Positions 27,400 to 38,335 of a stretch of 64,000 nucleotides of DNA are shown here, piece after piece. The translations under genes were made by a program, and so were the position numbers. Position 1 is the first letter of the stretch; every line of letters begins with the position of its first letter. Origin of the DNA: Myxococcales bacterium (GTDB lineage: Bacteria; Myxococcota; Myxococcia; Myxococcales; Myxococcaceae); the NCBI GenBank assembly GCA_030681895.1, contig JAUXRI010000266.1:1-64000 (forward strand). The letters are read 5' to 3'. The notes under the pieces were generated by a model, which saw nothing but the letters and a program-made list of their open reading frames with translations, had not been told where the DNA came from and did not search any database.

Positions 27400-28947
27400 A
27401 TGTTCGCCACCAGCACCCCAGCCACCGCCGAGGGCTTCTTCGATCGAACGACCGAGCTCGCCCGCATCGAAGACGCCGTCACCAAGCTCATGAAGGGCGC
27501 GCCGAAGTGGCTCTGCCTCGTCGGCCCCCGCAAGGTCGGCAAGACGAGCCTGTTGCGTGAGGTCGAGCGCCGCGCCCGCGAGCGTGGTGCCCCGCAGCCC
27601 TGCTTCGTGGTCGTCGACGTCCTCGAGACCATGCCGGCCTCGACCGAGGTCCTGCGCGCCGTGGCCCTGCAAGCCGTCGACGCCCTGCTGTCACGCGATG
27701 CCGGCCAGGCCCTCGGCCCGCTCGCCTCGACGCCTGATGCCTGGCGCGGCGCGCTCGTCGGCAGCCCCCTGTTCTCGAAGCTGCCACAGGCGCTCAAGCA
27801 GACCGTGCTCGAGCTACCCACCCTGCCCGACGACCCGCGCACGCTCGCCACCATGCTGTCGGTGCCAGAACAGCTCGCGCAGGCGCTCGACACGTGGGTG
27901 GTCGTCGCCATCGACGAGTTCCAGGAGCTGGCCACCCTGCACCGCGGCGGCCCCGACGTCATGGCGCTCTTGCGGAGCATCTGGCAGCGCCACCGCCGCA
28001 CCTCGTACATCGTGTCGGGCTCAGCGCGGAGCACGCTGCTCGAGCTGGCCACGTCGCAGCACTCGCCCTTCTTTCAGCACTTCGAGGTGCTCGAGGTCGG
28101 CGACTTCGACGAGGCGTTCGCGGTGAAGCTGCTGGTCGAAGTGAGCCGCGACGCGACGGCGCCCATCTCAGAGGCCCTCGCGCGAAAGCTCTTCGGCGCT
28201 CTCGGCGGCAATCCCTTCTATCTGCAGGTCGTCGGCGAGGCGGCGGCGCAGGAACGCGGGCGGGCCGAGGCGAGGCTGCGCAACGCGCTCCATCAGGTGG
28301 TCTTCAGCGACACGGGCCGCCTCTCGCTCTACTTCACCAACGAGTTCAACCGCCTCGTCGGGCGCGCCACGACGCTGGCCGCGACGCTCAACGCGCTGTC
28401 GCAGGGGCCGCAGACGCTCACGCAGGTGGCCACACACATCGGCAGCGCGACCGCCGCGACGCTGGGCTACCTCGAGCGCCTCAAAGACGCCGTGCGCAGA
28501 CGGGACGATGGCCGCTGGGAGCTCGCCGACGCGACGTTCGGCTCGTGGCTCGAGTGGCGGCAGCCGGGAGGGACGGTCGTGCCGATGCGCCTGGTGGGCG
28601 ATGAGGCCGAGCTCGCCGTCGCCCAGCGCCTCGCGCAGCTCGGGTTCGAGTTCCTGTATCTCTCTCGTGGCTCGCGCGGGCCGTTCGATCTGCTCGCCTC
28701 ACGCGGGGCGCAGCTGCTCGCGGTGCAGGTGAAACGAAAGCCGCTGCCGTTGCGTTTCACGAAGACCGAATGGCAGCGGATGCAGGGCGAAGCGAAGCGG
28801 TACGGCTGGAAGTGGCTGGTGGCGCAGGTCGAGAAGGGCGGCGCCGTTCACCTGCTCGATCCGAAGCGCGCCTCGACGAAGGCGGGCGTGACGTTGTCCG
28901 AGCGCGCCGCGCTCGAGAACCCGCTCGACTGGTTCGATGCCAGGTGA
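27400..28947 (+). CDS. AAA/STAND-like ATPase fused to a PD-(D/E)XK nuclease-like domain
   Basis: A 515-residue protein. The N-terminal ATPase resembles archaeal-type (ORC/STAND-like) P-loop ATPases: Walker A GPRKVGKT (42-49), Walker B VVVAIDEFQE (about 166-176) and a sensor-1-like SGSARS. A winged-helix-like region follows (about 300-385). Residues 400-450 look like a restriction/resolvase fold: the helix DEAELAVAQRL, then GPFDLLA and AVQVKRK, giving a D-(Q)xK active-site pattern as in archaeal Holliday-junction-resolvase-like domains. The combination suggests ATP-driven DNA recognition and cleavage. The gene is preceded by three 16-bp repeats and converges, with 6 bases between stops, on the DUF3686/flotillin/YqiJ set. 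Function is inferred only. Confidence 0.75.
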   Translation: MFATSTPATAEGFFDRTTELARIEDAVTKLMKGAPKWLCLVGPRKVGKTSLLREVERRARERGAPQPCFVVVDVLETMPASTEVLRAVALQAVDALLSRDAGQALGPLASTPDAWRGALVGSPLFSKLPQALKQTVLELPTLPDDPRTLATMLSVPEQLAQALDTWVVVAIDEFQELATLHRGGPDVMALLRSIWQRHRRTSYIVSGSARSTLLELATSQHSPFFQHFEVLEVGDFDEAFAVKLLVEVSRDATAPISEALARKLFGALGGNPFYLQVVGEAAAQERGRAEARLRNALHQVVFSDTGRLSLYFTNEFNRLVGRATTLAATLNALSQGPQTLTQVATHIGSATAATLGYLERLKDAVRRRDDGRWELADATFGSWLEWRQPGGTVVPMRLVGDEAELAVAQRLAQLGFEFLYLSRGSRGPFDLLASRGAQLLAVQVKRKPLPLRFTKTEWQRMQGEAKRYGWKWLVAQVEKGGAVHLLDPKRASTKAGVTLSERAALENPLDWFDAR

Positions 28948-28957
28948 CGCCCGTCAC
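28944..28957. terminator. short inverted repeat spanning two convergent stop codons
   Basis: GTGACG and CGTCAC arms, with a 2-base centre, overlap both the TGA of the plus-strand ATPase-nuclease gene (28945-28947) and the TGA of the minus-strand DUF3686 gene (28954-28956). It could form a small hairpin at either 3' end, but the stem is short and there is no T-run. Confidence 0.28.
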
Positions 28958-31900
28958 TGCTTACGACGGGGCCTTCCGCTGAGCCGTTCTTCGAGCGCGC
29001 GCACGAGCTGAATCGCCTCGTTCACCTGCTGCCACACCACCACGGCCTTCATCGCGCCGTCGGAGTCGACCTGCAGCACGCTCCGCGCGGCGGCCGCGAT
29101 GGGCGAGAGCGTGTCAGTGAGGGTCGAGAGCTGCCTGCGCACCTCTTCGGAGGCTGGAGCGTCTTTCGCGGCCCGGGCCGGTGCGGCGTTCTGCTGGGCT
29201 GCGAGCTTCTCGAGGAGCGGTCCGAGATCCTTCTGTGGAGCCGCGGCCGGCCGCTCGAGCACCAGCTTCGTCACCTCGGTCAGCTGGTTCAGCACAGGCG
29301 TGAGATCGATCTGCTGCGCCTGCGCACGTTGAGCCATCGCCTCGGCGACCTGCGCGAGCTGCTTGAGCGCTGGCGTCAGGTCGATGGGCGGCCTCGAGTT
29401 CGCCTCGGCGAGCGTCTTCAGCATGGGCCGCAGATCGACGGGCGGCGTGCTCTTCATCGCCTCCCCCGCCGACACCACGGCGTCACGGAGCGCGTCGAGC
29501 TTCGGTCCCAGATCGCTCTGCCTCGGCTTGTTGGCCGTCGCCGCGATCGTTTTCGACAGCGCCTCGAGGTGCGGTGCGAGTGGCGCTTCGGCAGGCCGCC
29601 GCGCGACCTCTGCAGCCGCCTCACGAATGCGCGACAGCTCTTCACCGAGCGCCGCGAGCGTGCCCGTTACCCGGACCACGGGATCGTCGTCCTTCCCGCC
29701 CTGGGTCTGCACGCGCTTGAAGCCCCGCTTGATCTCGTCCCACCGGGCTTTCTGATCGGCCGTCTGCCGCCCACGCAGCTCGGCGAGCTTGAGCAGGTTC
29801 TGCTCGGCCGACGTGGTGAGCGTCTGCGACTCACCCGCGTAGTGGGAGTCGATCAACGTCTCGAGTTCGGGGTCGGTCATCACCGCCACGATCTTCTCGG
29901 CCAGCTTGTTCATGTTGCGATAGCTGCCCTGCAGCTTGAACGGCGGCTCGGTGCGGAACCGATCGTCTTGCGACGCCGAGGCGATGTACTGCTGGTTCAC
30001 CCGGAGCAGGACGCGCTGCGCGAAGAACAGCCGCTTGAGCACCTCGATGATCTCGTTGAGCTCGGCGCCCGAGTAGCCGTGCTCGAGCTCGGTGGTGGCG
30101 ACCGATTGCCCCTGCGCCATCTTGAGCAACCGCGGAATGTCAGCCGGAGGGCGCGTCGTCAGCGGCGCCGTGACGGTGTTCGCCGTCAGCGCGTTCTCGA
30201 GGTAGCTGAGCGCGAAGAGATCGTCCTTCCCCGAGAGAATGTCGCCGAGGTTGTACGTGTCGGCGCGGTTCGCGAGCATGTCGGGAATTTTGAAGACCTC
30301 ACCCGATTCCGTGTACGGGTTGCCGGCCATCACCACGCAGAAGCGCTTGCCGCGAAGATCGTACGTGCGCGTGACGCCATTCCACACGCCCTCGATCTTC
30401 CGCTGCGCGTCGCACAACGAGATGAACTTCTGCAGCAGCTCGGGGTTCGTGTGCTGAATGTCGTCGAGGTACAGCATCACGTTGTTGCCGAGTTCGAACG
30501 AGAAGTTCATCCGCTCGACCTCGAGCTTCGCCGTGCTGTTCGGCGCGTCAGCCGGGTCGACGCTCACCACCTCGTGGCCCAGCGCGGGGCCGTTCACCTT
30601 CACGAAGGTGAGGCCGAGCCGGCTGGCGACGTACTCCATCAGCGTCGTCTTGCCGTAGCCGGGCGGAGAGACGAGCAGCAGCAGGCCGTTTCGATCGGTG
30701 CGCTTGTTCTCGCCTGCGGTGCCGAGCTGCTTGGCGAGGTTGGCGCCGATGAGCGGCAGGTACACCTCGTCGATGAGCCGGTTGCGAACGAAGCTCGAGA
30801 GCACCTTGGGCCGCAGCTCGTCGATGCGCAGCCGCTTGCGCTCGTGCTCGATGACCTCACGCACCTTCGCGCGGAACGCCTGGTAGGCGGGCAGCCGCTC
30901 TTCGACGAAGCGGGCCAGGCGGCGCTCGAACTCGTCGAGCCGCAGCGACAGCTTCTGTCCCTGCACGCGCGGGTGGTTGCTCAAGAGGCCCGTCAGCTCG
31001 GTCGACAGCAGCGCCGACGACACCTCCCGAGAGACCTGCCGTTCTTCGACGGCGAAGAGCCCCGCGGCCTCGAGCACCGGCCCGCGCATGGCCTCCGACG
31101 TGCCGGCCTTCACCACGTACGCCTCGAGCCACGCCCGGGTGAGCTTGAAGCGCTCGGCAGGATCGTCGACGGCACGCAGATCTTCCTCGAACGCGCGTCG
31201 CTGACCGGCGACCTCGATCGACGACAGCAGCGCCTCGCGCAGCGACAGGGCGTCGCGACTGACCACGAAGCGCTGGGTCTCTTTCGCGAGCTCTTCAGCG
31301 AGGTAGCGACCCGAGAGGAGCAGATCGCCGACAGACGCGTCGAGCGTCGAGGCCTTCGCCCACGCGCTGATTCGCGCCGTCAGATCGGCCGCGAGCCGAT
31401 CGAACTCGGCAGCGTGCCCGTACTGCGCCTTCAGCCGGCCCAGGCTCTGCGCGCGGCGAACGATCACCTTCCGCGTGGCGTCGTCGCCAAGCGCGGCCCA
31501 GGCGAGCGTCGCGAGCACCCGGGGCCACGCGTCGTACCGGAGCAACCCCGCCGACTCGTGCAGCGTCAGCAGCGCTTCCAGAATGCGCGCGGCGTCGACG
31601 TCGTGAACGCCTCGCTCGTAGCCCTCGTCGTACCGGCCCTGCGCCGCCTCGCGGGTGATCGACTGCAGGCCTTTGCCCTCGCGAATGAGCTCGTGAAACC
31701 GCGCGAACGACAGGCCGTCCTTGCCCGACTGCGCCGCGGTGAGGAGCGATGACGCGAGATACTCGGCGCGGGCGACGTCGGGCGACTCGCTCGGCAACGT
31801 CTGATCCCAATACGCCTTCGCAGCCTCGACGGCTGGCTCGTTCAGGCGCTGAAAGTAGTCCGAGCCCGTGAGGTGCAGGAACAGGCCGTCGTCCTTCGGG

Positions 31901-34542
31901 AGAACGGTCGCCTCGAGCGGCTGGGTGTTGACGTTGAAGCGGTGAGGCCCGAAGCGCACGACCGCGGTGCCGCCTTCGAAGAGATCTTTCTTGTCGCGAA
32001 GCGACCGGAGCGCCTCCTGCTTCGCCGTCTTGAGCCGCGAGTCGAGCTCATCGGACTTGACGGGATCCTTCAGGTCGATGAGCTGCGCGATGAACTGCTT
32101 GAGCTTCTGCGCGGTGGGGTCCGACGCGAAGTACGCGTTGAGCTCGTCGTCGGTCGTGAAGCTGGCAGCGCGCCGCGCGATGCCCTGCAACACACGCTCT
32201 GCGGCGCCGAACAGGTTGGCGGCCTTACGCTGTCGCTCGTCGACCAGCACCTGACGGCGGCGGGCGAACGCGTCGAACAGCTCTTCACGGCGCTGGGCGA
32301 GTTCACCGGCGAACTCGTCGACGTCCGAGAAGCGGCTCTCGAGCTCCTCGAGCTGCACGGAGAGCTTGCCGAGCTGCTCATCGACCTTCTCTGGTGAGTC
32401 GGCGAGGGCGAGCGCGCTGTCGATGCTCTGGGCGAACAGCTTGAACTGCGAGGTGAACTCGGCGCGAGTCTCGTGACCGAGGAGTTCCTTACGGCGCCCC
32501 TGCACGGTCGCCCGCACCCGGTTGAGCTTCGAGAAGACCTCGCTGATGTCCTCGAGGATCTTCGCCTTCTGGGTCGCGTCACCCGACGACAAGCCGCCGA
32601 CGACCTCGCCGAGCACGGTGAGACCCGTCCCCAGGCGCTCGACCTCTTCGACCTGACCCTTGAGCTCGGGCGTCTTGGTGGCCTTCGCGATCTCGGCGTC
32701 GAGCTTCGCGACACTCTCGTGCAGCGGCTGGAACGCGGCTGGCGTGAGCAGGAACTCGACGGTCCACGTGCTGACCTGCTCGAACGCGGCCACGACCTCG
32801 GCCTCGAGGCCATCGACGCGCGCGGCGTCCATGTACCGAATCTCTTTCAACGTGATGAGCACACCGCGCTGCTGCCGCAGGGAGGCCAGCGCCGTCATCA
32901 ACGAGTCGGTGGAGCGCAGATCGTCCTGCGTGAGGCCACGCAGCAACGTCTGTTGCTTCTCGACGGCCTTCGCCAGCTCCTCGCTGGCGCGCTTCTGCAT
33001 CGACAGCACCTTCTCGAACTCGTCGACGATCAGCTCGGCCGACTTCTTGAGCTCCTGCACCTTGCCGAGGAGATCGATCTCCTTCTGACCGACCCAGTGG
33101 AAGGCGTCGACGATACGCTGGCACGTCGAGATGAGGCCCTCGTAGCTGCGGCGCGTGGGCTTCTCGGACTCCGCCATGCGCTTGACGGTCAGCACCTCTG
33201 AGATGCCCCGCACCAGCTCGGCGTTCCCCAGCTTGCCCAGCGCCGTTTGCGGCGTCGGCAACGCAGCGGCGAACTCAGCCGAGACGAACGGCGTCTGCCA
33301 CACCTGCATCGGGTGCACGCGCGTGGGCTCGTTCGACGTCGAGCGGAACACCACCATCTGCCCGTCGGCGAAGATCGAATACCCGTGGCAGTGAATCGGA
33401 GAAGCGACCTCCTTGCGCACGAGGTTGTACGGCAGCAACACGTAGCGGCCGCCGGCCCGCTCGTAGAAGACGTACAGCACGTCTTCACCGTTCGGCGACT
33501 TGATGGAGCGCTTGAACTCGAGCCCGGTGACGTCGGCCTCGAAGACCTTCACCTCACCGGTCTGCAGCACGTAGCCGCCGGGGAAGATGACGCCCTGATC
33601 TTCGGGCAACTGCACGCACGACACGCCGATGGCGTCGACGCGGGCCACGGTGCTCGTTCGCGTATTGAAGACGAGGTACCGGTACTTCTCTTCCCGGAAC
33701 GGCTTCACCTTGAGCAGCACCAGCACGCCGAGCTTCGCGTAGTGGAACTCGGCGTCGTCGAGCGCTTGCGTGGGCTCGTCGACGGGCTCGGCGTAGATGC
33801 CCTGCCCCGTCTCGGTGTTGTTCTCGACCTTCACCGTGAGATCGCCACCGACCGTCTCGATGAACACCTCGTCGAGCACGTTGACGTGCGGGTGCCGGCC
33901 AGAGACGAAGTTCTCGCGGGTCGCCTGGGTCCAGCTGAAGTCGTGCGAAGGCGTGCGCGACACGTCTCCATCGCCACGGTTGTCGACGTAGGCGACGCGC
34001 CCAGAGGGGTCGACCGAGAAGCGCAGCACCTTCACGTCGCGCTCGGTCTGCCCGGTGCGGAACACGGCGAGCAGGCGGGCCTCGGTCTTCGTCAGCAGGT
34101 CGAGGCGCGCGTCCTTGTAGAACTTGAAGAGCTCTTCGAAGTCCTTCGTGAAGCGTTTGTCCTCGAGGAAGCCGCCGGCCGACGAGTTGGGCAGCGTCGA
34201 GAAGTCGAAGCCACCCTCGGCCGTGCGCGCGAAGGCGTGGAGCGAGAAGACGTCGCTGACGGCCCGCTCCTGCTTGAGCCCCATGAAGACGTTGAAGCCC
34301 AGCAGCAGCGAGCCGCCGATCGGCACGATGTTGCGCGGTACGCAGTTGTTCTCGGTGCGCACCCGCTCCGTGCCGATGACGGTGAGTTCCTGGCCGCCGA
34401 ACTCCACGCGCCGGCGTTCGTTGAGCGCCTCGACCTTCGCGCCGAGCTCCTTCGCCTGGGCGAGGAGCCGCCCTCTGATGACTTCGTAGCTCCCGCCCTC
34501 GAGGGTCGACTCGGTGGCAGGCGCCTGGGCTTCGGTAGCCAT
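28954..34542 (-). CDS. giant 'DNA repair ATPase' (DUF3686 AAA+) protein
   Basis: An 1862-residue AAA+ protein of the DUF3686 family, called DNA repair ATPase in databases on weak grounds. The first 550 residues contain the family signature (RTENNCVPRNIVPIGGSLLLGFNVFMGLK) and many beta-strands. A coiled-coil region covers about 600-850. The AAA+ module has Walker A SPPGYGKTTL (about 1292-1301) and Walker B VMLYLDDIQHTN (about 1352-1363). Residues about 1655-1780 form six DLxPxLxxL-type repeats, an amphipathic array likely to bind a partner. It lies 23 bases downstream of the flotillin gene and completes a YqiJ-flotillin-ATPase operon. The start at 34542 follows GAGGCG by about 7 bases. Function in the cell is unknown. 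Confidence 0.9.
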   Translation of the reverse strand: MATEAQAPATESTLEGGSYEVIRGRLLAQAKELGAKVEALNERRRVEFGGQELTVIGTERVRTENNCVPRNIVPIGGSLLLGFNVFMGLKQERAVSDVFSLHAFARTAEGGFDFSTLPNSSAGGFLEDKRFTKDFEELFKFYKDARLDLLTKTEARLLAVFRTGQTERDVKVLRFSVDPSGRVAYVDNRGDGDVSRTPSHDFSWTQATRENFVSGRHPHVNVLDEVFIETVGGDLTVKVENNTETGQGIYAEPVDEPTQALDDAEFHYAKLGVLVLLKVKPFREEKYRYLVFNTRTSTVARVDAIGVSCVQLPEDQGVIFPGGYVLQTGEVKVFEADVTGLEFKRSIKSPNGEDVLYVFYERAGGRYVLLPYNLVRKEVASPIHCHGYSIFADGQMVVFRSTSNEPTRVHPMQVWQTPFVSAEFAAALPTPQTALGKLGNAELVRGISEVLTVKRMAESEKPTRRSYEGLISTCQRIVDAFHWVGQKEIDLLGKVQELKKSAELIVDEFEKVLSMQKRASEELAKAVEKQQTLLRGLTQDDLRSTDSLMTALASLRQQRGVLITLKEIRYMDAARVDGLEAEVVAAFEQVSTWTVEFLLTPAAFQPLHESVAKLDAEIAKATKTPELKGQVEEVERLGTGLTVLGEVVGGLSSGDATQKAKILEDISEVFSKLNRVRATVQGRRKELLGHETRAEFTSQFKLFAQSIDSALALADSPEKVDEQLGKLSVQLEELESRFSDVDEFAGELAQRREELFDAFARRRQVLVDERQRKAANLFGAAERVLQGIARRAASFTTDDELNAYFASDPTAQKLKQFIAQLIDLKDPVKSDELDSRLKTAKQEALRSLRDKKDLFEGGTAVVRFGPHRFNVNTQPLEATVLPKDDGLFLHLTGSDYFQRLNEPAVEAAKAYWDQTLPSESPDVARAEYLASSLLTAAQSGKDGLSFARFHELIREGKGLQSITREAAQGRYDEGYERGVHDVDAARILEALLTLHESAGLLRYDAWPRVLATLAWAALGDDATRKVIVRRAQSLGRLKAQYGHAAEFDRLAADLTARISAWAKASTLDASVGDLLLSGRYLAEELAKETQRFVVSRDALSLREALLSSIEVAGQRRAFEEDLRAVDDPAERFKLTRAWLEAYVVKAGTSEAMRGPVLEAAGLFAVEERQVSREVSSALLSTELTGLLSNHPRVQGQKLSLRLDEFERRLARFVEERLPAYQAFRAKVREVIEHERKRLRIDELRPKVLSSFVRNRLIDEVYLPLIGANLAKQLGTAGENKRTDRNGLLLLVSPPGYGKTTLMEYVASRLGLTFVKVNGPALGHEVVSVDPADAPNSTAKLEVERMNFSFELGNNVMLYLDDIQHTNPELLQKFISLCDAQRKIEGVWNGVTRTYDLRGKRFCVVMAGNPYTESGEVFKIPDMLANRADTYNLGDILSGKDDLFALSYLENALTANTVTAPLTTRPPADIPRLLKMAQGQSVATTELEHGYSGAELNEIIEVLKRLFFAQRVLLRVNQQYIASASQDDRFRTEPPFKLQGSYRNMNKLAEKIVAVMTDPELETLIDSHYAGESQTLTTSAEQNLLKLAELRGRQTADQKARWDEIKRGFKRVQTQGGKDDDPVVRVTGTLAALGEELSRIREAAAEVARRPAEAPLAPHLEALSKTIAATANKPRQSDLGPKLDALRDAVVSAGEAMKSTPPVDLRPMLKTLAEANSRPPIDLTPALKQLAQVAEAMAQRAQAQQIDLTPVLNQLTEVTKLVLERPAAAPQKDLGPLLEKLAAQQNAAPARAAKDAPASEEVRRQLSTLTDTLSPIAAAARSVLQVDSDGAMKAVVVWQQVNEAIQLVRALEERLSGRPRRKQ

Positions 34543-34565
34543 GGCTTCACGCGCCTCGTGTCAGA

Positions 34566-36671
34566 TCACTTCGACGGCTTGTCGTCGCGAACGAGCCGGC
34601 TCATCAGCGCGGCCGAGGCGAGGTTCTGCACGTCGGTCGTGGCGCCCGGCTTCGAGAGGACCGCCTTCAAGTCGTCGGGCAACGAGCGGCCGCCTTCGAG
34701 GTACTCCTTGAAGAGCACCTTGAGCTGCTCGGAGTTGTCCACCGCCCCGTCGACCGACTGGCCCAGCGAGACCGCCTTGACGAACTGGTCGAAGAAGGCG
34801 CCGTCGCCGCCGACGATGCTGATCTTCGCGTTGCCCATCGCCTGCGAGAGCACCTGTGCCTGGCTGGCCGCGATGTCGCGCTTGACGTGCAGCGCCTCGA
34901 TCTCGACGAACTTGTCCTTCTCGAGCCGCAGGCGGAACTCTTCGTGCTCGCGCGTGACGCCCTCGAGGAGCTTCATGGCGCCGGCCTTCTCGTGCAGACC
35001 GCGCGCCTCGGCGAGCAGCTTCTCTTGAATGCCGTGCGCCTCGGCCTGGACCTTCGCCTTGACCGACTCGGCCTCGGCGAGCCCGCGCCGCTGAATGACG
35101 TCGGCTTCGCCCTGCTCGATGGTGATGCGGGCCATGCCCTTCTTCTCGTCGCCTTCGGCTTCGGCCGTCATCTTGGCGCGCAGCGCGTTGGCGTTCGCGG
35201 CGCCCTGCTTCTCGATGGCCGCGGCTTCGGCTTCACGCACGCGCACCACTGCGAGGCCACGCTTCTCTTCGGCGACGGCCTGGGCCTCGAGCACGCGGGC
35301 CTTCGCGAGCCCATCAGCGGCCGACTCGGCCTGGGTGCCTTCGGCGATGCGCATCTTGGCGCGCGCGTCCTTGTCGGCGGCCTCGAGGTCAGCCTCGGCC
35401 ATGATGAGCCGGGTCTTCGCGGTGTGCTTGGCGACCTCTTCGCTCGCCTCGGCGGCCTTCACCTGCGCGACGACGTTCTCCTGCGCGCGGCCCTCGGCCT
35501 CGATGATGATGGCTTCCTTGTTGCGCGTGGCCTCAGCGACCTTGCGCAGCTGCTTGATGGCCTCTTCTTCGGCGGCGACCTTCTTCTCGACCGAGATGCG
35601 CGTCGAGACGACGTCGGCGATGGCCTTGCGCTCGATCTCGAGCGCCTTCTCCTTGCTGATGCGCTGCAGCTCGACCTCACGCTCGCGCATGATGGCCTCG
35701 AGATCGCGGTCCTTCTTCACGCGCTCGGTCTCGATGCCGACGACGCGCTCGCGGTTCTTCTCGGCGACCTCGACCTGGCGGGACTTGTTCTGCTCGTTGA
35801 TGAGGATCGTCTCTTCCGCGCTGATGCGGGCGTTCTCGGACTTGGTGCGCTCCTCCTGCTGTACCTTCTGGGTGTCGGCGAGCTCGCGGGCCTGAATGGT
35901 CTCGATCTCACGCTTCTGCTTGGCAGCAGCCTCGGCGCGCTGACGCTCGAGCGCGAAGACAGCCTCGTCGGCCTCGACGTTCTGCTTGGTGATCTGCTTG
36001 CGCTCGGTCTGGCGGAAGTCGTTGGTGAGCACGTTCTGAATCGTCGTCAGCTCGGTGATCTTCCGGATGCCGGCGGCGTCGAGGATGTTCTCCTTGTCGA
36101 GCAGCTCGAGCGGCGTCTGCTCGAGGAAGTCGATGGCGACGTCTTCGAGGTTGTAGCCGTTCAGATCCTTGCCGATGACCTGGACGATCTGGTCCTTGAA
36201 GGCCTCTCGCTCCTTGTAGAGGTCTTCGAAGTTGAGGCGCTTGCCGACGGTCTTGAGGGCTTCGGAGAACTTGGCCTCGAAGAGCTCCTGCAGGGTGCGC
36301 TCTTCAGACGCGCGGGCGCAGCCGACCGACTGGGCGACCTTGAGCACGTCTTCGACGGTCTTGTTCACGCGCACGAAGAAGCTGACCTTGATGTCGGCGC
36401 GAATGTTGTCGGCGCAGATCAGGCCTTCCTTGCCGCGGCGATCGATCTCGATCGTCTTCAGCGAGATATCCATCACCTCGGCGCGGTTGATGATCGGCAG
36501 CACCACGGAGCCCGTGAAGGCAACCTTTGGCTCCTTGCCCATGGTGTTGACGATGAGGACCTGGCCCTGGCTCACCTGTCGGTAGAACCGGCTGATCATC
36601 ACGCCGATGAACAACACGAGTACGAACCCAGCAACGACGACGCCGCCGACGATCCACGCAGTCTCTGACAT
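34566..36671 (-). CDS. flotillin-family SPFH protein (YqiK-like)
   Basis: A 701-residue band-7/SPFH protein. One membrane anchor (about 6-29, WIVGGVVVAGFVLVLFIGVMIS) precedes the SPFH domain (about 30-200, GQVLIVNTMGKEPKVAFTGSVVLPIINRAEVMD). The next 400 residues are an almost uninterrupted coiled coil of Glu/Ala/Arg/Lys heptads (EEERTKSENARISAEE, AEAEGDEKKGMARI), as in YqiK, which polymerises on membranes as ring- or raft-like assemblies. A GGGGAGG ribosome site lies 8-14 bases before the ATG. It is coupled to the OB-fold/YqiJ-like gene upstream (194 bases) and to the giant ATPase downstream (23 bases). Its role may be membrane organisation or stress protection. Confidence 0.92.
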   Translation of the reverse strand: MSETAWIVGGVVVAGFVLVLFIGVMISRFYRQVSQGQVLIVNTMGKEPKVAFTGSVVLPIINRAEVMDISLKTIEIDRRGKEGLICADNIRADIKVSFFVRVNKTVEDVLKVAQSVGCARASEERTLQELFEAKFSEALKTVGKRLNFEDLYKEREAFKDQIVQVIGKDLNGYNLEDVAIDFLEQTPLELLDKENILDAAGIRKITELTTIQNVLTNDFRQTERKQITKQNVEADEAVFALERQRAEAAAKQKREIETIQARELADTQKVQQEERTKSENARISAEETILINEQNKSRQVEVAEKNRERVVGIETERVKKDRDLEAIMREREVELQRISKEKALEIERKAIADVVSTRISVEKKVAAEEEAIKQLRKVAEATRNKEAIIIEAEGRAQENVVAQVKAAEASEEVAKHTAKTRLIMAEADLEAADKDARAKMRIAEGTQAESAADGLAKARVLEAQAVAEEKRGLAVVRVREAEAAAIEKQGAANANALRAKMTAEAEGDEKKGMARITIEQGEADVIQRRGLAEAESVKAKVQAEAHGIQEKLLAEARGLHEKAGAMKLLEGVTREHEEFRLRLEKDKFVEIEALHVKRDIAASQAQVLSQAMGNAKISIVGGDGAFFDQFVKAVSLGQSVDGAVDNSEQLKVLFKEYLEGGRSLPDDLKAVLSKPGATTDVQNLASAALMSRLVRDDKPSK

Positions 36672-36865
36672 GTTCCCATCCTCCCCAGAAAGGCTCTGGC
36701 GACTCTATGACGCGCTTGGCTCGCGATGATGGAGTTTCATCGTCCGCTTGAAGCTCGCGAAAGACACGACGGTCCCTCTGAACGATTTCCCTGCTGGACA
36801 ACCCCTTGATTGGTCGTTTTGCGATTGATCAGCGACGACAGCCCACGGTTCTTTCCGAAGCATCT

Positions 36866-37684
36866 TCAGCCGCGCGTGCGCATGCGCGACGAGAGCACCT
36901 GATCGACGCGCGCAGGGTCTTTCAGCGCCTCGAGCTCCTGCGGCTCGAGCCAATCGAGCGGTTCGATGTCCCACGTCTCGGTCTTCTCGTCGAAGTCGAC
37001 GATGAGCGCGCGATCGCCCTTCTTCAACTGGTTCGCCTTCTCGCAGGCGACGTGCAGGTTGAGCCCCGCGCCGCCGTCACTGACCGTCGCGGTGCCGAAG
37101 CCGGCGTCGACACGGCCCGAGGTGATCTCGCAGATCTTCCCGATGAAGTGATGGCGTCGCTGCGGCGCCTCTGATGTGAACGCCTTCGTGATGGGCCTGA
37201 TGGCGCCTGCCGTCGCGAACATCGCCAGCAACATCGAGCCCAGGAGCACGCCCGACTTCGCCGCGAGCCCTGCGTCGGCGCCCAGCCAGGACGAGCCGAA
37301 CATCGAGAAGACCCACGAGAAGAAGACGAGGAAGCTGCCAGAGATGGTCGAGGGCACCTTGCCGAAGCCGAGCAGCGCGAACAGCCCGTTCCCGCCGTCT
37401 TCGGGCTGAGCGAGCTCTCCGCCGATGGCTTCACCCGCGGCCTTCACCCCACCCGTCACCGCCTCGCCCGCCGCTTTGACGCCACCGATCGCTGCGTCCC
37501 CGGCGCCCTTGAGCGCCCCCGTCATCGCGTCGCCAGCAGCCTTGGCACCACCCTCGAGCGCGCCGTCACCGTCGAAGGCCACGACGCCCATGAGCACGAA
37601 CACCCAGTACAGAAACGCGATGCCCAGCAGCACCGTGAACGGCACCGCGGGAAACGACAGGAGCGTGCGCAGGAAGGCTTCCAT
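36866..37684 (-). CDS. YqiJ-like OB-fold membrane protein
   Basis: A 272-residue YqiJ/OB-fold protein of the type paired with flotillins. A first membrane helix lies at about 11-36 (LGIAFLYWVFVLMGVVAF). Residues about 42-90 are an unusual Gly/Ala/Lys-rich run of 11-residue repeats (KAAGDAMTGAL, KGAGDAAIGGV, KAAGEAVTGGV, KAAGEAIGGEL), which would form an amphipathic helix. Two more membrane segments are at about 112-135 and 142-168. The C-terminal domain (about 175-240) is a small beta-barrel with KICEITSGRVDAGFGTATV and KGDRALIVDFDEKTETWDI. NfeD/YqiJ OB domains bind SPFH proteins. It is the first gene of the flotillin/ATPase set. Confidence 0.85.
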   Translation of the reverse strand: MEAFLRTLLSFPAVPFTVLLGIAFLYWVFVLMGVVAFDGDGALEGGAKAAGDAMTGALKGAGDAAIGGVKAAGEAVTGGVKAAGEAIGGELAQPEDGGNGLFALLGFGKVPSTISGSFLVFFSWVFSMFGSSWLGADAGLAAKSGVLLGSMLLAMFATAGAIRPITKAFTSEAPQRRHHFIGKICEITSGRVDAGFGTATVSDGGAGLNLHVACEKANQLKKGDRALIVDFDEKTETWDIEPLDWLEPQELEALKDPARVDQVLSSRMRTRG

Positions 37685-37789: not shown

Positions 37790-38335
37790 TCACTCGAGTC
37801 GATGCCCGGAGACCGAGACGTCGGTGCCATCCCGACGGACCCGAAGCGCCCACTGCCGGCCGCACGATGGGCAGTCCTCCACCGAGTCGGCGCCGTCGAG
37901 CTCTTCCATCGGGAGCGACACCTCGATCGGCTCAGCGCAGTACGGACAGCGCGCGTCGTGCTCGAGCGAGACTCGCGCAGGGCCAGGGCGAATCGCGTCA
38001 GGCCACCGCGGCGTCGGGTGTTCACCCGCCTCGAGCTGCCCCCACGTCTCGATCACACAGGTCTTCAGCGACTCGGCATCGAGACCGTCGAAGGTCTCGT
38101 CGACCGGCCCAAGCCGCTCGAGCGCGCGCGCGAGGAGCCGGCGTGCGCCACCGCCGCGCCCCTTCTCGTGATGATGCAGCGCCGCGGCCCACAGCACCAG
38201 CACCTGCAGCACCCGCTTCTCGTCGCCCCGACACACCCGCCACCCATCTTCGAAGGCGTCATGCGCGGCGTGGAACTGCCCTGCTTCGAAGAGGCTGCGG
38301 CCTGCGCTGCAGCTCACCTGAAACGCGGGGCTCAC
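37790..38335 (-). CDS. DUF309 domain fused to CPXCG zinc ribbon
   Basis: A 181-residue protein with a GTG start at 38335 that overlaps the TGA of the BKACE gene (GTGA). The frame extends upstream inside BKACE, but that part is a shadow. Residues about 8-85 form the DUF309 helical domain: LFEAGQFHAAHDAFEDGWRVCRGDEKRVLQVLVLWAAALHH, with the conserved AH...E motif. The C-terminal part has two CxxC pairs, CPYCAEP and CPSCGRQW (about 132-166), typical of CPXCG zinc ribbons that usually stand alone. The fusion of the two is not something I recognise as standard. No function is established for either domain. Confidence 0.78.
   Translation of the reverse strand: MSPAFQVSCSAGRSLFEAGQFHAAHDAFEDGWRVCRGDEKRVLQVLVLWAAALHHHEKGRGGGARRLLARALERLGPVDETFDGLDAESLKTCVIETWGQLEAGEHPTPRWPDAIRPGPARVSLEHDARCPYCAEPIEVSLPMEELDGADSVEDCPSCGRQWALRVRRDGTDVSVSGHRLE

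What the first reader, a model, noticed from the sequence alone, without database searches (positions are those of the whole stretch)
28954..37684. Flotillin, YqiJ-like OB-fold protein and a giant DUF3686 AAA+ ATPase in one operon
The three minus-strand genes are in order YqiJ-like, flotillin, 1862-residue ATPase, with small gaps (194 and 23 bases) and good ribosome sites. Flotillin plus YqiJ/NfeD pairs are established membrane-scaffold partners. Adding a very large AAA+ protein with coiled coils and a C-terminal repeat array suggests an ATP-driven machine held at a membrane scaffold. I do not know of an experimentally described function for the trio, so it is a candidate for a new stress or defence system.
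Basis: partly seen in the sequence, partly recalled or inferred. Interest (0 to 1): 0.75.

Follow-up and report, generated by a model that had tools for sequence, protein, structure and literature searches.

The report
Flotillin–YqiJ–ATPase membrane operon, myxobacterial copy
Three neighbouring genes encode a membrane scaffold protein, its small membrane partner and a very large ATP-driven motor; the same trio recurs in many bacterial phyla and was described from genome comparisons in 2024, so this is a new example of a known, experimentally untested membrane-stress gene set.

Summary
The window (a Myxococcota genome, nearest relative an Archangiaceae bacterium at 88% protein identity) carries YqiJ-like (36866-37684), flotillin (34566-36671) and an 1862-residue DUF3686 AAA+ protein (28954-34542), all on the minus strand with gaps of 194 and 23 bases. 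The linkage is not chance: of 84 related loci with enough upstream sequence, 83 have a flotillin upstream on the same strand, and 80 of 83 also have a YqiJ-like gene, across at least five phyla. Predicted architecture: N-terminal beta-propeller, helical coiled-coil region, RuvB/MoxR-like AAA+ domain with intact catalytic motifs, lineage-specific tail.

The trio is not new. Ravi et al. 2024 (PMC11237479) described band-7/flotillin + YqiJ/YuaF + an AAA+ ATPase with coiled coil and beta-propeller, linked to PspA and CesT/Tir chaperones. Myxococcal DUF3686 genomes almost always carry PspA too (89 of 93).

Most likely function: an ATP-driven protein remodeller recruited to a flotillin-YqiJ membrane platform during envelope stress, possibly acting on PspA or damaged membrane proteins. 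Defence against phage gets no support: near-core in Myxococcaceae, absent from phage collections, no convincing defence-model match. The name 'DNA repair ATPase' has no support here either.

The parts
36866..37684 (-). YqiJ/NfeD2-like membrane protein, 272 aa: N-terminal transmembrane region, Ala/Gly-rich repeat linker, C-terminal OB-like domain
   Evidence: blastp to DUF1449 protein in L034 E 1.7e-8; hhalign of family A2 to E. coli YqiJ 90%; hydrophobic segments
34566..36671 (-). Flotillin (SPFH/Band 7) protein, 701 aa, N-terminal transmembrane helix, long coiled coil
   Evidence: Band_7 E 6.4e-11; blastp to E. coli YqiK E 5e-37; 33-51% identity to orthologues in four other bacterial phyla
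28954..34542 (-). DUF3686 AAA+ protein, 1862 aa
   Evidence: PF12458 E 1.9e-198; orthologues about 42-52% identical over about 1640 residues
33295..34383 (-). beta-propeller domain of the ATPase (residues 54-416)
   Evidence: AlphaFold2 pLDDT mostly 85-94 with all-beta topology; Foldseek matches dominated by propeller proteins (Nup, IFT-A, Kelch, clathrin terminal domain, prolyl oligopeptidase) although TM-scores are low
31981..33225 (-). helical / coiled-coil region of the ATPase (residues 440-854), includes DUF7902 at 603-686
   Evidence: AlphaFold2 model; PF25472 E 1.1e-23
29863..30792 (-). AAA+ domain (residues about 1251-1560): Walker A PPGYGKTT at 1293, Walker B LYLDDIQH at 1357, sensor-1 AGNP at 1406, arginine-finger-like ANRAD at 1424
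   Evidence: Motif positions; motif residues invariant or nearly so in 41 orthologues; Foldseek best matches RuvB, NorQ, CbbQ
29188..29514 (-). C-terminal DLxPxL repeat array (five copies), lineage-specific
   Evidence: Motif scan; two or more copies only in close myxobacterial relatives

Best explanation
The trio is the core 'flotillin-YqiJ-AAA+' operon. Shown here: the three genes are kept together across phyla, the ATPase has intact AAA+ motifs, and the protein is predicted as beta-propeller + helical coiled-coil + RuvB/MoxR-like AAA+ domain. Inferred: YqiJ and the flotillin assemble a ring- or clamp-like platform on the inner membrane; the large ATPase forms a hexamer recruited to it through its propeller or coiled-coil arms, and uses ATP to remodel, unfold or dislodge proteins held there (stress-damaged membrane proteins and/or PspA polymers), as part of envelope-stress maintenance.
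For: Linkage: 83/84 loci have flotillin upstream on the same strand, 79 of them within 700 bp, and 80/83 also have YqiJ. Trees of the three proteins correlate, r 0.83-0.87 against a shuffled maximum of 0.16. Genes outside the trio are kept only in the closest relatives. AAA+ motifs conserved, fold nearest RuvB/NorQ/CbbQ. PspA lies in the same locus in 27 of 83, with CesT/Tir in Hymenobacter and YjfI in pQBR103; 89 of 93 DUF3686-bearing Myxococcota genomes have PspA. Published: FloA-NfeD holds unfolded membrane proteins (PMC11222466), SPFH protein YdjI recruits PspA (PMC8581546), and the operon itself with a chaperone-like/ESCRT-like proposal (PMC11237479).
Against: No experiment on the trio was found; 'DUF3686' appears in no held paper. 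E. coli has YqiJ-YqiK without the ATPase, so the dyad can work alone. The PspA association is weak once clade is considered: inside the family PspA is present whether or not DUF3686 is, and outside it 9/9 vs 48/89, p 0.009. A Xanthomonas genome (G196) has the trio but no PspA match. AAA+ fold matches have modest TM-scores. The mirror-tree also reflects shared species history.
Confidence: 0.5

Rival explanations
1. The ATPase is a dedicated PspA (ESCRT-III-like) disassembler, a bacterial functional counterpart of Vps4, with flotillin/YqiJ only placing it at the membrane.
For: PspA in the same locus in 27/83 loci, Tir-PspA-YqiJ-flotillin-ATPase in Hymenobacter; 89/93 DUF3686 Myxococcota genomes carry PspA.
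Against: No MIT-like domain detected by Pfam; AAA+ fold is closest to RuvB/MoxR, not Vps4; two trio genomes show no PspA match; most trio loci lack PspA nearby.
Confidence: 0.2
2. A MoxR-type assembly or insertion factor for one specific membrane complex or enzyme, as NorQ or CbbQ are for theirs.
For: Foldseek matches to NorQ and CbbQ at E about 1e-6; propeller plus long helices could be a client adaptor.
Against: No constant client gene next to the trio; MoxR partners usually include a VWA protein (own knowledge), none seen in the annotated neighbourhoods.
Confidence: 0.15
3. An anti-phage defence system.
For: Large multidomain ATPase; patchy in Pseudomonadaceae (35/198 genomes); found on some plasmids.
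Against: Near-core and single-copy in the window's family (84 of about 95 genomes sampled); no phage or viral-contig copies; PADLOC matches only weak, AAA/coiled-coil level; no effector domain found.
Confidence: 0.06
4. A DNA repair ATPase, as the Pfam description and NCBI product name state.
For: Names only, plus fold similarity of the AAA+ domain to RuvB.
Against: No DNA-binding or nuclease domain found; constant partners are membrane proteins.
Confidence: 0.04

Closest known systems
Band-7/flotillin + YqiJ/YuaF + beta-propeller AAA+ operon (Ravi et al. 2024, PMC11237479, section 19)
   Same: Same three proteins and the same ATPase architecture; the paper explicitly mentions abbreviated operons with only these genes
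   Different: This copy lacks adjacent PspA and CesT/Tir; ATPase has a lineage-specific DLxPxL tail; PspA is elsewhere in the genome
E. coli yqiJ-yqiK (SPFH2 with NfeD2)
   Same: YqiJ-like plus flotillin pair in the same order; flotillin homologous (E 5e-37)
   Different: No DUF3686 ATPase follows
S. aureus FloA-NfeD unfolded-protein clamp (PMC11222466)
   Same: Flotillin plus NfeD-type partner at the membrane
   Different: No ATPase; its stabilising activity is ATP-independent
B. subtilis YdjFGHI / PspA-SPFH system (PMC8581546)
   Same: SPFH protein linked to PspA and envelope stress
   Different: Different SPFH subfamily and partners, no large ATPase
MoxR AAA+ (NorQ, CbbQ) and RuvB
   Same: AAA+ fold similarity and catalytic motifs
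   Different: Low TM-score overlap, no VWA partner, giant N-terminal region

Membership tests
Flotillin-YqiJ-AAA+ operon (Ravi et al. [quoted passage not shown]
Flotillin-YqiJ-AAA+ operon (Ravi et al. 2024) | YqiJ/YuaF-type transmembrane partner in the same operon | tested here: met
   family-level homology only, direct pairwise match to E. coli YqiJ fails
Flotillin-YqiJ-AAA+ operon (Ravi et al. [quoted passage not shown]
   AlphaFold models and Foldseek; propeller match with low TM-scores
Flotillin-YqiJ-AAA+ operon (Ravi et al. 2024) | PspA with CesT/Tir in the operon (full form only) | tested here: not met
   Not found in the window; one PspA elsewhere in the genome. The paper's abbreviated form does not require it
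Anti-phage defence system | Match to a known defence model or placement among mobile, patchy defence genes | tested here: not met
   PADLOC weak only; near-core in family
MoxR AAA+ family | AAA+ of MoxR type with VWA partner | tested here: inconclusive
   Fold similarity; no VWA gene seen in annotated neighbourhoods
DNA repair ATPase | Action on DNA | not testable with these tools
   No DNA-related domain found; needs a mutant phenotype

The most novel reading that the evidence does not exclude
The DUF3686 protein is a megadalton-scale, membrane-scaffold-docked AAA+ extraction machine that turns a flotillin-NfeD holding platform into an active, ATP-driven membrane-protein or PspA remodelling system, a bacterial functional analogue of membrane-docked unfoldases such as FtsH-HflKC or Vps4-ESCRT.
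Probability: 0.3. Interest if true: 0.75.

Novelty: new member of a known kind. Interest (0 to 1): 0.38.

Why it matters
Flotillins are usually seen as passive scaffolds. A deeply conserved, dedicated giant ATPase would give one class of them a motor, and would make a long-open question (what flotillin platforms do) directly testable in tractable hosts such as Myxococcus, Pseudomonas or Streptomyces. It would also correct a widespread misleading annotation ('DNA repair ATPase').

Tried and rejected
Defence-system reading: PADLOC, phage and viral searches gave nothing convincing. DNA-repair reading: no supporting domain. Wider operon including the neighbours (thymidine phosphorylase, STAND ATPase, BKACE, IMPDH): not conserved beyond close relatives. 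Sequence search of solved structures with the ATPase profile gave only short Walker-region matches. Promoter scan uninformative for this high-GC genome.

Full report
What is there. Three minus-strand ORFs lie at the stated coordinates: a 272-aa membrane protein (36866-37684), a 701-aa SPFH protein (34566-36671) and an 1862-aa protein (28954-34542). Pfam gives Band_7 (E 6e-11) for the second; DUF3686 (E 1.9e-198), DUF7902 (E 1e-23) and AAA (E 1e-8) for the third; and nothing for the first. The first is nonetheless homologous to a DUF1449 (YqiJ) protein (E 1.7e-8), and its family profile matches E. coli YqiJ, though a direct pairwise comparison fails. The flotillin is homologous to E. coli YqiK (E 5e-37). 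The genome is a 9.8 Mb Myxococcota assembly; the nearest held relative is an Archangiaceae bacterium, 88% identical in the ATPase.

Linkage is real. In plasmid records, 12 hold a DUF3686 relative; in the 11 of them that were fetched, a flotillin lies directly upstream on the same strand, in Actinomycetota, Deinococcota, Bacteroidota and Gammaproteobacteria. (Some of these 'plasmid' records are clearly chromosomes or megareplicons by size.) A scan of GTDB genomes found at least 584 relatives. Of 84 loci with at least 2.5 kb upstream, 83 have a flotillin upstream on the same strand (79 within 700 bp, median gap 85 bp), and 80 of 83 with at least 4 kb also a YqiJ-like gene; the loci kept are those best matching the window, so distant forms are under-sampled. 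Exceptions: Labilithrix L100 has no flotillin nearby, and in four loci 2-6 kb lies between flotillin and ATPase. Distances in the three protein trees correlate at 0.83-0.87, partly because of shared species history. Genes beyond the trio are shared only with the closest relatives, so the trio is the unit.

Architecture. AlphaFold2 (mean pLDDT 85 and 83) shows an all-beta domain at residues 54-416, long helices at 440-854, small beta hairpins at 862-899, helices to 1140, and an AAA+ domain with a beta-hairpin pair before sensor 1. Foldseek puts the N-terminal part among propeller-plus-helical proteins, with low TM-scores, in agreement with the published description as beta-propeller, and the AAA+ part nearest RuvB, NorQ and CbbQ. 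Walker A, Walker B, sensor-1 and the arginine-finger-like motif are present and conserved in 41 orthologues, so it is predicted to be an active ATPase. The tail beyond residue about 1645 is variable: DLxPxL repeats in the window's close relatives, and a TIGR02266 domain, which I take (from my own knowledge) to be PilZ-like, in Polyangia (below the curated cut-off).

What is known. Ravi et al. [quoted passage not shown] The window is such an abbreviated form; its genome holds one PspA on another contig and 12 SPFH matches. The word 'DUF3686' occurs in no held paper, and 'DNA repair ATPase' together with flotillin in none.

Mechanism. Flotillin with an NfeD partner forms a clamp that holds unfolded proteins without ATP (PMC11222466), and an SPFH protein recruits PspA to the membrane in B. 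subtilis (PMC8581546). The simplest model is that the ATPase adds an ATP-driven remodelling step to such a platform. PspA is a candidate client: it is in the locus in 27 of 83 cases, and present in 89 of 93 DUF3686-bearing Myxococcota genomes versus 58 of 100 without (counted by hand from the two tables). The four lacking it are draft assemblies of 650 to 1,100 contigs. But inside the window's family PspA is present regardless, and outside it the contrast is 9/9 versus 48/89 (p 0.009, uncorrected for phylogeny), so this is suggestive only. Two trio genomes outside the phylum sample show no PspA match.

Defence is unlikely: single copy and near-core in the window's family, patchy in the family of a Pseudomonas centre (35/198), no phage or viral hits, only weak PADLOC matches. 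Verdict: observation confirmed; a well-conserved, already described operon whose biochemical function is still open.

Noticed in passing
window 27400-28947 (+): Convergent gene ending 6 bases from the ATPase stop: STAND-like AAA ATPase (ATPase_2/AAA_16) with a weak C-terminal PDDEXK-like match; found next to the trio only in the closest relative (L046).
   Followed up: partly
L054, L055, L100, C-terminal end of the DUF3686 ATPase: Polyangial ATPases carry a C-terminal TIGR02266-like domain (E 7e-8 to 1e-14), a possible lineage-specific regulatory input.
   Followed up: partly
window 37400-37564, YqiJ-like residues 41-95: Ala/Gly-rich short tandem repeats (VKAAGEAVTGG-type) between the first membrane segment and the rest; function unknown, absent from the other aligned orthologues in A2.
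   Followed up: no
L033 (pQBR103, Pseudomonas fluorescens SBW25 plasmid): The trio sits behind YjfI-PspA-rhomboid-DUF2491-DUF350-DUF1190-glutathionylspermidine synthase on a large environmental plasmid, a handy place for genetics.
   Followed up: no
L100 (Labilithrix), L052, L054, L094, L108: Loci where the ATPase is separated from, or lacks, the nearby flotillin; useful for testing whether the ATPase can act without linkage.
   Followed up: partly
window 37790-38300 (-): Probable DUF309-like / cysteine-rich (CPYC) gene on the same strand about 100 bases upstream of the YqiJ-like gene (identified by eye); homologues near the trio in L044-L046 only.
   Followed up: partly
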